64,000 nt of DNA, taken from assembly GCA_903871775.1 (NCBI GenBank), contig CAIQIA010000011.1, positions 186,001 to 250,000 on the forward strand, written 5' to 3'. The DNA is from an uncultured cyanobacterium. Its GTDB lineage: Bacteria > Cyanobacteriota > Cyanobacteriia > PCC-6307 > Cyanobiaceae. The translations under genes and the position numbers were made by a program. The notes below the pieces were generated by a model. The model had not been told where the DNA came from. It searched no databases and worked only from the letters and a program-made list of their open reading frames with translations. Positions within the stretch are counted from its first letter, which is position 1. Each line of letters begins with the position of its first letter. This document shows, one piece after another, positions 1,286 through 6,464 of the stretch.

Positions 1286-2974
1286 TCAGGCGACCCGGCG
1301 GCCCAGCAAGCTGGCGGCGAACTCCCGCGCCTCGCCGCTGTCGCCGCCGGCGAGTTCCGCCAGCTCGGCCTCGCGGGCGCGGGTGTCCCGCAGGGGGGAC
1401 ACCTGCGAACGGGTGATCCCGTCTTCGACGCTCTTGCTGACGCGGAAATGATGGTCAGCGGCGGCCGCCACCAGGGGCTGGTGGGTGACGCAGAACACCT
1501 GGCGGCTGGCGGCCAGGCGCCGCAGCAGCCGGGCCATGGTGCCGCTCACCCGGCCGCTCACGCCGCTGTCGATCTCGTCGAACAGCAGCGTCACGTGGGG
1601 ATCGGCGGCGGCCAGGCAGGTCTTGAGGGCCAGCAGAAAGCGGCTCATCTCACCGCCGGAGGCCACTTCGGCGAGGGGAGCGAGGGGCTGGCCCGGGTTG
1701 GCCGAGAACAGAAAGGCGACGGCATCGGCACCGTCTTCCGACGGATCGCCAGGCTCGACCGCCACGGCGAAGCGGACGTTGGCCAGGCCCATCGGCCGCA
1801 GGGCCTCCATCAGCTGCTCTTCGAGGGTGATCGCCGAACGACGGCGCTGGTCGCTCAGCAGGCCCTGGCAGCGGTCACGCTCGGCCCGGGCCTCGGCTTC
1901 GGCCTGCTGCAGCCGCGCGAGGCCCGCGGCGGCACCGCCCGGCTCCAGCTCGAGCCGCAGCCGGTCCCTGAGCGCGATCAGCCCGGCCAGGGTGAGCCCA
2001 TGGCGCCGCTCCAGGGCCCTGAGATTCGCCAGCCGCTCCTGCACCGCCGCCAGGCTGGCCGGATCACTCTCGAGGGCGGCGCCATAGCGCTCGAGCGAGC
2101 GCACCAGGGTCTCGAGGCCCGCCTGGGCGTCGAGCAGCTCCTCCAGGCAGGGGGCAAGGCCCCCGTCGAGCTGCGCCATCTGCTGCAGCTCGTGGCCACA
2201 GGCGGCGAGGTGATCGAGGGCCGACGGGGCCCCGTCGGCTCCGTCCACCAGCCGCCCGCTGAGCACGGCCAGACCCTCCTGCAGCCGCACCCCGTGGGCG
2301 GCGCGGTCCTGCTCACCCTGCAACCGCTCCCGCTCGTGGGGATCCTGCAGATCGGCGGCCTCCAGGTCCTGCAGCAGCTGCTCCTGGCGCTCCCGGTCCC
2401 GCTGGCGGTCCTGCTCCTGCTCCCGGGCCTGCTGCAGGGCAGCGGCGGCCTCGCGCCAGCGGCGAAAGGCCCGGCGGGCACCATCGAAGATGGCCAGCCC
2501 CTCCTCACCGGCACAGCGGTCGAGCCAGCGGCGCTGCTGGCCCGGCCGGGCCAGCTGCTGGGTCTGGCCCTGAACGGTGAGATCGATCAGCAGCGGCCGA
2601 AGGTCCTGCACCTGGGCACGGCCGAGGGCGATGCCGTTGAGCCGGTGGCGGCTGCTGAGGCGCCCGTCCTGCAGGCGCCAGTCACGGCTGAGCAGCAGCT
2701 CGTCATCGTCGACCTCCAGCTCCTGGGCCTCGAGCCAGGCGGCGACGGGGGGCGTGAGGCTGAAGCTGGCCTCGATGCGGCCACGGCTGGCGCCGGCCCG
2801 CAGCAGCCGGCCCCCCTGGCTCCCCTGGGCGCCGCCGGTGAGGGCATCAAGGGCATCGAGCAGCAGCGACTTGCCGGCACCGGTCTCACCGGTGAAGACG
2901 CTGAACCCCTCGGCAAAGCTCAGCTCAAGGCTTTCGGCCAGGGCGATGTTCTCGAGCCGCAGGGCGGTGAGCAC
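1286..2974 (-). CDS. recN: DNA repair protein RecN
   Basis: RecN is an SMC-like ATPase that helps process double-strand breaks by homologous recombination. The 562-residue product has the family's normal length. Walker A (GETGAGKS) is at residues 29-36. A long Gln/Arg/Glu-rich coiled-coil region fills the middle (about 150-370). Near residue 470 lie the ABC signature region (SGGEMSRF) and Walker B ([12 protein letters not shown]). The start is GTG 2974; no ATG precedes it in frame after an upstream stop. It is followed on the same strand by uvrA after 38 bases and preceded by amt. Two repair genes therefore sit together. In many bacteria recN is SOS-regulated, but no LexA-like box is seen in the 59-base gap upstream. 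Confidence 0.96.
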
Positions 2975-3033
2975 GGCAGCTGCCCATGAACATGCCGACC
3001 GTAGCGAGTCTGACGGTGATCCCCAAGGGGCGG

Positions 3034-4317
3034 TCAGCCGGTGAATTCGTTGTTGTAGGCCTCTTCACCATGGGCATTCACATCGAGGCCCTGGCGTTCT
3101 TCATCCGGATGCACGCGCAAGGGCTCGACCAGGGCCACCAGCCGCAGCACCACGTAGGTGCCCACCACCACCCACAACGCCGTGAAGGCAGCGGCCTGCA
3201 GCTGAAGCCACAGCTGGCCGGGGCCACCGTGGAAAACACCGGTGAGCAGCACCCCCAGCAGGCCGGCGAGGCCATGGACCGGCAGCACGTCGAGGCTGTC
3301 GTCGAGATGGAGGCGGCCCTTGAGCTGCAGGGCCTGGCTGCAGGCCAGGGCCGCCAGGGCACCGATGGCCAGGGCGGCCATCGGGGTGACGAAACCGGCG
3401 GCCGGGGTGATCGCCACCAGGCCGGCCACCGCCCCGGTGGCGACGCCGACGGCGGTGGGTTTGCCCCGCTGCTGGGTCTCGATCAGCATCCACACCAGGG
3501 CGGCGGCGGCCCCGGCGCTGTTGGTGGTGAGGCAGGCCAGGCTGGCCAGCTCGCCGGCCACCAGGCCGCTGCCGCCGTTGAATCCCAGCCAGCCGAACCA
3601 GAGCAGGCCGGCCCCCAGCACGATCAACGGCACGTTGTGGGGCGGGGCGATCTGGGCCGGATGGCCGCGCCGGGGACCGACCACGACGGCCGCCACCGCC
3701 GCCGCGAGGCCCGAGGCCATCTCGACCGGATAGCCACCGGCGAAATCAAGGGCCCCGAGCCCCCCCGACGTGCCGAGAAATCCACCCGGTGCCCAGACCA
3801 TGTGGGCCACGGGGATGTAGACGACAAAGCTCCACAGCAGCACGAAGAGCATCCAGGCCCTGAAGGCCATCCGCTCGACCACGGCCCCCGAGATCAGGGC
3901 GGGGGTGATGACGGCGAAGGTGAGCTGAAAGAGGGCGACGGCCCCGTGGCTGGGCCCCCCGTCACTGACGGGGGTCGACCAGTTGACCAGGCCCGCCCAG
4001 CCGAGGCCGCCGATGAAAGGGGCGAGGGGGCCATGGCCGGGGGAGAAGGCCAGGCTGTAGCCCACCACGACCCAGACCACGCTGACCAGGGCCAGGGAGC
4101 CGAAGCTCATCATCAGGGTGTTGAGCACATTGCGACCCCGCACGAAGCCGGCGTAGAAGAACGCCAGCGCCGGTGTCATCAGCAGCACCAGGGCAGCACT
4201 GATCAGCACGAAGCCGTTGTTGGCGGTCCCCACCGAGGGCACGGCGGCGGCCACGGGGGCCAGGGTCAGCATCGGCAGGGGCAGGGCAACCCCCAACGTC
4301 CCCGCTAACAGGGGCAC
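3034..4317 (-). CDS. amt: Ammonium transporter (Amt family) with Glu at the first twin-His position
   Basis: This is a trimeric inner-membrane ammonium channel/transporter of 427 residues with about 11 hydrophobic segments. Family signatures are visible: FYAGFVRGRN near residue 55, DFAGG at 191-195 and FGWLGFNGGS near 245. The conserved pore histidine that normally lies eight residues after the Asp of DFAGG is replaced by glutamate (E199, codon 3721-3723), while the second pore histidine (H348, PVHGLAG) is kept. Fungal Mep1/Mep3 carry the same His-to-Glu change. The called start is GTG 4317; ATG 4272 (residue 16) is an alternative and would leave more room for the NtcA-type box at 4323-4336. 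The N-terminus is hydrophobic, as expected for Amt. It lies 59 bases upstream of recN. Confidence 0.93.
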   Translation of the reverse strand: MPLLAGTLGVALPLPMLTLAPVAAAVPSVGTANNGFVLISAALVLLMTPALAFFYAGFVRGRNVLNTLMMSFGSLALVSVVWVVVGYSLAFSPGHGPLAPFIGGLGWAGLVNWSTPVSDGGPSHGAVALFQLTFAVITPALISGAVVERMAFRAWMLFVLLWSFVVYIPVAHMVWAPGGFLGTSGGLGALDFAGGYPVEMASGLAAAVAAVVVGPRRGHPAQIAPPHNVPLIVLGAGLLWFGWLGFNGGSGLVAGELASLACLTTNSAGAAAALVWMLIETQQRGKPTAVGVATGAVAGLVAITPAAGFVTPMAALAIGALAALACSQALQLKGRLHLDDSLDVLPVHGLAGLLGVLLTGVFHGGPGQLWLQLQAAAFTALWVVVGTYVVLRLVALVEPLRVHPDEERQGLDVNAHGEEAYNNEFTG

Positions 4318-4321
4318 TTCA

Positions 4322-4368
4322 TGTAGCGATTACTACCAAATCAAGGGTCAATGGTTCCAATCGCTACA
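4322..4368. promoter_or_regulatory. NtcA-type box inside a 10-bp inverted repeat between amt and the ABC1 kinase gene
   Basis: The sequence GTAGCGATTACTAC (4323-4336) fits the cyanobacterial nitrogen regulator NtcA consensus GTA-N8-TAC exactly, and amt genes are classic NtcA targets. The same bases take part in a perfect inverted repeat: TGTAGCGATT (4322-4331) pairs with AATCGCTACA (4359-4368) across 27 bases. The region separates two divergent genes, so it is unlikely to be a terminator. No good -10 box lies about 22 bases from the NtcA box in either direction, and the box is only 5 bases from the called amt start. The promoter geometry is therefore unresolved. Confidence 0.6.
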
Positions 4369-4415
4369 GAACGCCAGCCAGGGCCGGCCACGACCCTCCA
4401 CCCAGGCCACCTACG

Positions 4416-6464
4416 GTGGTCCCCCTTTCCAGTCCAGCCAGTCCCGCCGCCCTGCCGATGCCGCCAACCACTGCCGAAGCCAGCCTGGCCGCCATGCGCG
4501 CCGCCGTGCTCGGTGATGCCGTGCTCGGTGATGCCCCACCTGCTGATGCAGCGGCGGCGGCAGAACCGTCGGGCGACATCGGCGACTTCATCGAAGCCGC
4601 GGGGCTGCTGAGCTACGACCCGGCGGCCATCACCCGCATCTATGCCGGCCATCCCCAGCGCCTGCTGCGCCGGCTCTGGCAGACGCTCGTGCCCATCGGG
4701 CTCTACCTGCTGGCCGTGGCCAGCGACCGTCTCAGCGGCGCCCTGCGCCAGCCCGAACGGGCCCGGGCCCGGGCCCGCGAATGCGCGGCCCTGCTGGCTG
4801 ACCTGGGCCCGGCGTTCATCAAGGCCGGCCAGGCCCTCTCGACCCGGCCCGACATCGTGCCGCCGGTGTTGCTCGAAGAACTGGCGCGGCTGCAGGACCA
4901 GCTGCCGGCCTTTCCCAGTGATCTGGCCATGGCCTGCATCGAAGAGGACCTGGGGGCAACAGTGGCCGAGCTCTACGGGCAGCTCGATGCCGAACCGATC
5001 TCGGCGGCGTCCCTGGGCCAGGTGTACCGGGGCAGCCTTCCTGACGGCCGACCGGTGGCGGTCAAGGTGCAACGACCCGGCCTACGGGAACAGATCACCC
5101 TCGACCTCTACATCGTCCGCAACATCGCCGTCTGGCTGATGGCCAACATCGGCCTGATCCGCAGCGATCTGGTGGCCCTGATCGACGAGCTGGGCAAACG
5201 GGTCTTCGAAGAGATGGACTATTTCAACGAAGCCTCGAATGCCGAACGCTTCGCGGCCCTCCATGCCCACAACCATCGCATCGCCGTGCCGGCGATCCAT
5301 CGCTCCCACACCAGCCGGCGGGTGCTGACGATGGAGTGGATCGATGGGGTCAAGCTGACCCGCCTTGACGCGGTCAAGGCCCTTGGGGTCGATCCCGAAG
5401 AACTGGTGGAGGTGGGGGTGAACTGCAGCCTGCAGCAGCTGCTTGAGCACGGCTTCTTCCATGCCGACCCCCATCCGGGCAACCTGCTGGCCCTGGCCGA
5501 CGGACGCCTGGCCTACCTCGACTTCGGCATGATGAGTGAGGTGGCCCGCGAATCGCGCAACGGTCTGATCCGCGCCGTCGTGCACCTGGTCAACCGCGAT
5601 TTCGACAAGCTCTCCAAAGACTTCGTCACCCTCGGCTTTCTCAGCGAGGAAGTGGACCTGCGGCCGATCGTGCCCGCCTTTGAGACGGTGTTCAGCCAGG
5701 CCCTCGAGGCGGGGGTGAGCCGCATGGACTTCAAGGCGGTCACCGATGACCTCTCCGGGGTCATGTATCGCTTCCCCTTCCGGGTTCCGCCGTATTACGC
5801 CCTGATCATCCGTTCGTTGATCACGCTCGAAGGCATCGCCCTCAGCGTCGACCGCGATTTCAAGATCCTCGGCGCCGCCTACCCCTATTTCGCCCGGCGA
5901 CTGCTCGAAGACGACGATCCAGACCTGCGCCGCTCCCTGCGCGAGATGCTCTTCGACGGGGACCATTTCCGCTGGAGCCGGCTCGAGAACCTGGTGCTCA
6001 GCGCCGCCAACCAGCAGCAGCTCGACCTCGAACAGCTGCTCGACCAGACCCTCGATTTTCTGTTCTCCCCCGGTGGTGGACTGCTGCGGCAGCAGCTGGT
6101 CGATGCCGCCGTCGAACGGGTGGATGCGGCGGGCTGGCGATTGCTGCTGACCCTGGGCCGGCAGCTGCCCCGCCAGCTGCGCCCTCCGGGTCTGCAACGA
6201 CCCCTGCGTGGGGCCGGCGGCCGTGATCCCCTGCTCGACCTCGAGCCGGTGCGGGAGCTGCTGCGGATCCTGCGGCAGCTGCCGGGGTTCGAGGTGGGCC
6301 TGCTCACCCGGCGGCTGCCGAGGCTGCTGCGGGAACCCGACCTGCGTCGGATGGGGCTCGACCTGGCCCGGGGACTGGCCGAACGGGGGGTGGTGCGGCT
6401 GGTGCGCGACGTGATGGTCGAACCCGACCTGCGTCGGGAGCTCGATATCGCCCAACCGGCGTAA
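4416..6464 (+). CDS. ABC1/AarF (UbiB) family atypical protein kinase
   Basis: The family consists of atypical kinase-like ATPases linked to quinone and prenyl-lipid metabolism; cyanobacteria carry several copies. Visible motifs are the KxGQ region (FIKAGQALSTRPD, about residues 134-147), the Ala-rich loop (SAASLGQVY, about 197), the ATP-binding lysine (VAVKVQRP, about 215), the catalytic loop (HADPHPGN, about 348) and the metal-binding motif (LDFG, about 368). The last 200 residues are Leu/Arg-rich and lack a recognised domain. The start is uncertain: GTG 4416 gives 682 residues and ATG 4458 gives 668. A 15-base tandem repeat (4506-4535) duplicates VLGDA near the N-terminus. It is divergent from amt and probably heads the run toward thrC. 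Confidence 0.9.
   Translation: MVPLSSPASPAALPMPPTTAEASLAAMRAAVLGDAVLGDAPPADAAAAAEPSGDIGDFIEAAGLLSYDPAAITRIYAGHPQRLLRRLWQTLVPIGLYLLAVASDRLSGALRQPERARARARECAALLADLGPAFIKAGQALSTRPDIVPPVLLEELARLQDQLPAFPSDLAMACIEEDLGATVAELYGQLDAEPISAASLGQVYRGSLPDGRPVAVKVQRPGLREQITLDLYIVRNIAVWLMANIGLIRSDLVALIDELGKRVFEEMDYFNEASNAERFAALHAHNHRIAVPAIHRSHTSRRVLTMEWIDGVKLTRLDAVKALGVDPEELVEVGVNCSLQQLLEHGFFHADPHPGNLLALADGRLAYLDFGMMSEVARESRNGLIRAVVHLVNRDFDKLSKDFVTLGFLSEEVDLRPIVPAFETVFSQALEAGVSRMDFKAVTDDLSGVMYRFPFRVPPYYALIIRSLITLEGIALSVDRDFKILGAAYPYFARRLLEDDDPDLRRSLREMLFDGDHFRWSRLENLVLSAANQQQLDLEQLLDQTLDFLFSPGGGLLRQQLVDAAVERVDAAGWRLLLTLGRQLPRQLRPPGLQRPLRGAGGRDPLLDLEPVRELLRILRQLPGFEVGLLTRRLPRLLREPDLRRMGLDLARGLAERGVVRLVRDVMVEPDLRRELDIAQPA

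What the first reader, a model, noticed from the sequence alone, without database searches (positions are those of the whole stretch)
3721..3723. Ammonium transporter with Glu in place of the first pore histidine
Eight residues after the Asp of DFAGG, where E. coli AmtB has His168, this protein has Glu199 in GGYPVEMASG; the second pore His (H348) is kept. The two histidines coordinate ammonium in the pore. In fungal Mep1/Mep3 the same change is natural and is reported to alter pH dependence and selectivity. Finding it in a cyanobacterium suggests different transport properties, perhaps suited to low ammonium or higher pH.
Basis: partly seen in the sequence, partly recalled or inferred. Interest (0 to 1): 0.6.

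Follow-up and report, generated by a model that had tools for sequence, protein, structure and literature searches.

The report
Cyanobacterial ammonium transporter with pore glutamate
A second ammonium transporter in small cyanobacteria carries a glutamate where nearly all relatives have the first pore histidine, this is conserved and tied to a nitrogen-starvation control site, and it shows that a pore variant described as fungal also exists in bacteria.

Summary
An intact Amt gene (window 4317/4272 to 3034, minus strand) has GAG (Glu) at 3721-3723, aligned without gaps to E. coli AmtB His168. The second pore His, Phe gate and S1 site are kept. It is not a sequencing error: about 35 of 400 genomes of the same family carry this orthologue, and Glu is invariant in every copy read. 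The genome also has an ordinary His-type Amt. All 31 Glu-type genes examined have a perfect NtcA box (GTAN8TAC) upstream (0.83 expected; 3 of 13 His-type paralogues), although the neighbouring genes differ, so the gene is probably induced by nitrogen shortage. The likely start is ATG 4272, making the residue Glu184. Elsewhere I found Glu-type Amts in 18/296 Actinomycetota, 3/299 Bacillota and 0/299 Pseudomonadota genomes, and in no other sampled cyanobacterial family. Glu arose more than once. The papers I read describe this variant only in fungal Mep1/Mep3. By analogy with AmtB H168E and Mep1 it should be an active, fast, lower-affinity transporter with changed proton handling.

The parts
3034..4272 (-). 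amt gene, Glu-type ammonium transporter, most likely extent (ATG 4272, 412 aa). The longest ORF starts at GTG 4317 (427 aa), inside or upstream of the promoter.
   Evidence: ORF and translation; NCBIfam TIGR00836 395.7 bits over cut-off 343.3. Start inferred: the genus-mate orthologue is closed by a stop just upstream of the matching ATG, and the NtcA box ends 6 bp from GTG 4317.
3721..3723 (-). GAG, Glu at the first twin-His position (E199 from GTG 4317; E184 from ATG 4272; AmtB H168)
   Evidence: invariant in the orthologues
3274..3276 (-). CAT, second pore His (H348/H333; AmtB H318), kept
3916..3918 (-). Phe gate residue F134 (AmtB F107)
3580..3582 (-). Phe gate residue F246 (AmtB F215)
3793..3795 (-). 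periplasmic S1 site Trp W175 (AmtB W148)
3568..3570 (-). periplasmic S1 site Ser S250 (AmtB S219)
3052..3123 (-). conserved cytosolic tail PLRV...ERQGLDVNAHGEEAYNN, which aligns to the AmtB tail
   Evidence: ungapped alignment to AmtB tail; conserved in the clade
4323..4336 (-). NtcA box GTA-N8-TAC (GTAGTAATCGCTAC read on the minus strand) upstream of amt
   Evidence: only exact match in 64 kb, 0.25 expected; a perfect box in 31 of 31 orthologues, 0.83 expected

Best explanation
This is a second, nitrogen-stress-controlled ammonium transporter of a cyanobacterial family that includes Cyanobium. It descends from an Amt lineage in which the first pore histidine was fixed as glutamate. Shown by sequence: an intact Amt, Glu in place of His168, all other pore landmarks kept, Glu invariant in the clade, a conserved NtcA box, and coexistence with a His-type Amt. 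Inferred: NtcA activates the gene when 2-oxoglutarate is high. Glu sits where His168 connects the two water wires of the pore and works as a proton acceptor and relay next to the retained second His. NH4+ is still mostly deprotonated and NH3 and H+ cross separately, but with higher turnover, lower affinity and possibly some leak of whole cations, as in AmtB H168E and Mep1-type proteins. The cell would thus have two Amts with different kinetics.
For: Alignment to AmtB and to the AmtB variant structure 2now with Glu at this site. NCBIfam amt match. Glu invariant across orthologues of 8 genera. His-type paralogue in the same genome. Clade monophyletic, support 98. NtcA box in 31 of 31, against 3 of 13 His-type paralogues and 0 of 13 actinobacterial Glu-type genes, and kept although the neighbours differ. 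NtcA consensus GTAN8TAC and amt genes as known targets: PMC3898017. Function by analogy: AmtB H168E current 22.28 vs 3.38 nA, Km 12.87 vs 0.8 mM, D2O cuts current about 4-fold but not to zero (PMC9040831); Mep1 electrogenic, Mep2 H194E shifts to higher Vmax and a Mep1-like pH optimum (PMC7048316).
Against: No transport data exist for this protein or any bacterial natural Glu variant that I found. The AmtB H168E data come from a single mutant out of its natural context; reverting Mep1 to His-His made it inactive (PMC7048316), so surrounding residues matter and kinetics cannot be carried over. A 13 mM Km would be odd for a gene induced by nitrogen starvation, so the natural protein may have compensating residues. 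The structure model was poor (mean pLDDT 66), so pore geometry rests on homology. No TAN3T -10 box stood at canonical spacing after the NtcA box.
Confidence: 0.6

Rival explanations
1. The protein is mainly a sensor or a regulatory decoy for PII rather than a significant transporter, and Glu reflects loss of transport.
For: The cytosolic tail that binds PII in AmtB is conserved, and a normal His-type Amt is present in the same genome.
Against: Phe gate, S1 site and second His are invariant. Glu is strictly conserved, whereas a dead pore should drift. AmtB H168E and Mep1 transport well (PMC9040831, PMC7048316).
Confidence: 0.08
2. Glu is close to neutral: the protein behaves like any Amt, and Glu is a frozen historical accident without physiological meaning.
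For: Hall and Kustu found H168E AmtB supports growth on low ammonium (as cited in PMC3647058). In the groL-msrB slot, related genomes hold a His-type Amt instead.
Against: Glu is invariant in the clade and arose more than once. Single mutants change current, Km and pH optimum strongly (PMC9040831, PMC7048316).
Confidence: 0.2
3. The Glu version lets the transporter pass whole NH4+ (channel-like, partly K+-permeable) for fast bulk uptake or for release of excess ammonium, rather than scavenging.
For: AmtB H168D/E keeps part of its current in D2O and lets K+ through in yeast (PMC9040831). Its Km is high.
Against: The NtcA box in 31 of 31 points to induction under nitrogen shortage, not excess.
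Confidence: 0.15
4. A base-calling error or pseudogene.
For: None found.
Against: Intact frame, and Glu in independent assemblies of the genus mate and about 30 other genomes.
Confidence: 0.005

Closest known systems
Fungal Mep1/Mep3-type ammonium transporters
   Same: Glu at the first twin-His position with the second His kept; coexist with a His-His paralogue (Mep2) in one genome (PMC9040831, PMC7048316).
   Different: Bacterial, about 412 aa. Closest by sequence to cyanobacterial Amts (tree). NtcA box instead of yeast control. No fungal Mep1 sequence was at hand, so kinship was not tested.
E. coli AmtB and its H168E variant (PDB 2now)
   Same: Same fold family, aligned over nearly the whole length; same pore residues including the engineered Glu.
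   Different: Glu is natural and fixed here. Not an AmtB equivalog (306 bits against cut-off 657).
Cyanobacterial His-type Amt1 (paralogue L002 in the same genome)
   Same: 57% identity; among the nearest His-type relatives in the tree.
   Different: DFAGGTVVHI, with His. Lacks the clade's universal NtcA box in most genomes.
Actinomycetota and Bacillota Glu-type Amts (L139-L156, L313-L315)
   Same: Glu at the same position, second pore His kept in the 18 Actinomycetota rows, Ser three residues on in nearly all.
   Different: Different clades. All Glu-type Amts as one clade is rejected (p 1.7e-42); union with the Solirubrobacteraceae-containing group is not rejected (p 0.335). Bacillota ones were not placed in the tree.

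Membership tests
Amt/Mep/Rh family, bacterial Amt (PF00909, TIGR00836) | Profile match over the curated cut-off, full length | tested here: met
   TIGR00836 395.7 bits, cut-off 343.3, positions 2-406 of 406; PF00909 354.9 bits
Amt/Mep/Rh family, bacterial Amt (PF00909, TIGR00836) | Phe gate, S1 Trp/Ser, pore Asp of DFAGG | tested here: met
Amt/Mep/Rh family, bacterial Amt (PF00909, TIGR00836) | Two pore histidines (typical but not defining: Mep1/Mep3 lack the first) | tested here: not met
   First is Glu, second is His. Lowers only the claim that it is a canonical twin-His Amt.
AmtB equivalog (NF007947) | Score over 657 bits | tested here: not met
   306 bits
Marine subtype transporter (TIGR03644) | Score over 514 bits | tested here: not met
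   190.5 bits
Fungal Mep1/Mep3 type | Glu at His1 with His at His2 | tested here: met
   compared with the description in PMC7048316
Fungal Mep1/Mep3 type | Common descent with fungal Mep1/Mep3 | not testable with these tools
   No fungal Mep1 sequence held. The window protein groups with cyanobacterial Amts. Membership not claimed.
Fungal Mep1/Mep3 type | Electrogenic transport, higher pH optimum than the His-His paralogue | not testable with these tools
   Needs electrophysiology
NtcA regulon | GTAN8TAC box upstream, conserved | tested here: met
NtcA regulon | TAN3T -10 box about 22 nt downstream (class II promoter) | tested here: not met
   No TAN3T within 40 nt of the box in the window or the orthologues listed; start point unknown. 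NtcA control is therefore inferred, not filed as shown.
NtcA regulon | NtcA binding and induction by nitrogen shortage | not testable with these tools
   Needs ChIP, gel shift or RNA data

The most novel reading that the evidence does not exclude
Bacteria evolved, more than once, a Mep1-like class of ammonium transporter with a Glu-His pore dyad. In picocyanobacteria it forms an NtcA-controlled second system whose proton-coupling and flux differ from the His-His Amt, with accompanying residues (Ser at +3, Leu/Val before the second His) that make Glu work well.
Probability: 0.4. Interest if true: 0.62.

Novelty: new variant of a known kind. Interest (0 to 1): 0.48.

Why it matters
The role of the first pore histidine in ammonium transport is still argued. 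The papers I read know natural Glu only from fungi, where it is tied to filamentation signalling. Bacterial Glu-type Amts that sit beside His-type paralogues in one cell, one of them with a strict nitrogen-control signature, offer natural test material free of that complication. They could show which residues let Glu replace His, and why a cell would want both pore types.

Tried and rejected
Sequencing error or pseudogene: rejected by orthologues. Another His taking the pore place: none in the ungapped segment. Matches of the Glu pattern in Pseudomonadota were mostly SecF-like (L216-L218, L221; named from memory of the SecF motif, not by a profile search) and the other matches were not Amts either; four matches in other cyanobacteria and five in Bacillota were not Amts. 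NtcA box belonging to the divergent ABC1-kinase gene: unlikely, since that neighbour recurs in this arrangement only in the window's genus. Fixed co-varying residues: Ser202 (36 of 37 Glu rows against 17 of 62 His rows), Leu345 and Pro177 go with Glu, but there are too few independent pairs for significance. AlphaFold model: mean pLDDT 66, not used further. Rfam: nothing in 2900-4700.

Full report
What is there. The minus-strand ORF 4317..3034 encodes a complete ammonium transporter of 427 aa counted from a GTG. It matches NCBIfam TIGR00836 (amt) over its cut-off, 395.7 against 343.3 bits, and Pfam PF00909. In the ungapped alignment to E. [quoted passage not shown] The best PDB match, 2now, is an AmtB variant that itself has Glu there. 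The second His (3276-3274), Phe gate, Trp and Ser of the outer binding site, pore Asp and the tail are kept.

Start codon. The longest reading frame begins at GTG 4317, but an NtcA box ends only 6 bp upstream (4323-4336). In the genus mate the frame is closed by a stop just upstream of the ATG that corresponds to ATG 4272. The protein therefore most likely begins at ATG 4272 and has 412 aa; the residue is then Glu184 and the second His is His333. This is inference.

Conservation. Of 400 genomes of the same family, 35 have a full or nearly full-length orthologue at 71% identity or more, in 8 of the 59 genera sampled. All copies that I could read, including Cyanobium usitatum (L037), have Glu. 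34 of the 35 genomes hold at least one further PF00909 match, though in a few fragmented assemblies that match is only a fragment. In the window's own genome the other copy reads DFAGGTVVHIAAG, with the normal His.

How common elsewhere. In an 80-locus sample from named genomes, Amts read 109 His to 2 Glu. A strict nucleotide pattern for D[F/Y]AGGxxVE, each hit checked for being an Amt, gave: in 386 cyanobacterial genomes, Glu-type Amts only in the window's own family; 18 of 296 Actinomycetota genomes; 3 of 299 Bacillota; none of 299 Pseudomonadota. The pattern demands Val before Glu, so these are lower bounds.

Origin. On a tree of 103 Amts the cyanobacterial Glu clade is one group (support 98) within a set dominated by cyanobacterial Amts. 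With the residue's own column left out, at least six changes between His and Glu are needed, and all Glu-type proteins as one clade is rejected (p 1.7e-42). A union of the cyanobacterial clade with the actinobacterial group around L095 (Solirubrobacteraceae) is not rejected (p 0.335), so an old transfer between these two remains possible.

Regulation. A perfect GTAN8TAC palindrome lies upstream in 31 of 31 Glu-type genes, against 0.83 expected from base-shuffled sequence. In the window it is the only such site in 64 kb. Of 13 His-type paralogues that could be scored, 3 had one, and 0 of 13 actinobacterial Glu-type genes. The orthologues are related, so the 31 are not independent, but the eight inner bases and the flanks have diverged. 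The window's neighbours recN and ABC1 kinase recur in this arrangement only in the genus mate; elsewhere the gene often sits between groL and msrB-gpmI (gene names given here from the protein sequences, not from a profile search). The box therefore travels with the transporter. GTAN8TAC is the NtcA consensus and amt genes are known NtcA targets (PMC3898017). I found no TAN3T -10 box at canonical spacing, so the promoter is unproven.

Locus history. In the groL-msrB-gpmI neighbourhood, sampled genomes carry a Glu-type amt (L299, L300, L302), a roughly 50% identical His-type amt (L293-L296), or nothing (L307, L308). L309 keeps groL-amt but not the adjacent msrB, and L298 keeps groL-amt-gpmI without a detected msrB. 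Glu- and His-type occupants occur within one genus code (g10). Replacement by recombination or differential loss of paralogues would both give this.

How it most likely works. In AmtB, ammonium is deprotonated at the outer site; NH3 passes the pore while the proton moves along two water wires joined through H168 (PMC9040831). AmtB H168E carries 22.28 nA against 3.38 nA for wild type, Km rises from 0.8 to about 13 mM, and D2O lowers the current about fourfold without abolishing it, so proton hopping stays dominant with some direct cation passage (PMC9040831). In yeast, Mep1 (Glu) is electrogenic and Mep2 (His) electroneutral; Mep2 H194E gains Vmax and a Mep1-like pH optimum; Mep1 with His restored is inactive (PMC7048316). 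By analogy the cyanobacterial protein should be an active transporter with altered proton handling and high flux. Whether it favours low ammonium or high pH cannot be told: the Km of the AmtB mutant speaks against high affinity, the NtcA box speaks for use in nitrogen shortage, and native context residues may retune it.

Novelty. PMC3647058 calls fungal Glu the only common natural variant, PMC7048316 states that the histidine pair is widely conserved except in fungal Mep1-like proteins, and a term search within a 2023 review of prokaryotic Amts (PMC10433425) showed no mention of a natural bacterial Glu in the passages displayed. Two further literature searches found no report of bacterial Glu-type Amts, but only open-licence papers were searchable. 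I rate it a new variant of a known kind.

Noticed in passing
L299, L300, L302 (Glu-type); L293-L296 (His-type); L307, L308 (empty): One groL-msrB-gpmI slot in related picocyanobacteria holds a Glu-type amt, a His-type amt or no amt; in the window's genus the Glu-type gene lies elsewhere, next to recN.
   Followed up: partly
Upstream of amt in L009, L014, L023-L026, L029, L031: About 20 nt after the NtcA box several orthologues carry a second palindrome of the form GTTCANNNTGAAC, possibly another regulator's site or part of the promoter.
   Followed up: no
window 3235-3245: The window protein and its genus mate lack about 14 residues (ALxSxNPAGADGLLAG-like) after TGVF that the other orthologues have, in the loop before the last helix.
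   Followed up: no
L139-L156: Actinomycetota carry Glu-type Amts in several separate clades, usually beside a second Amt in the same genome.
   Followed up: partly
L313-L315: Three Bacillota genomes carry Glu-type Amts reading DFAGGTVVEMASG; they were not placed in the tree.
   Followed up: no
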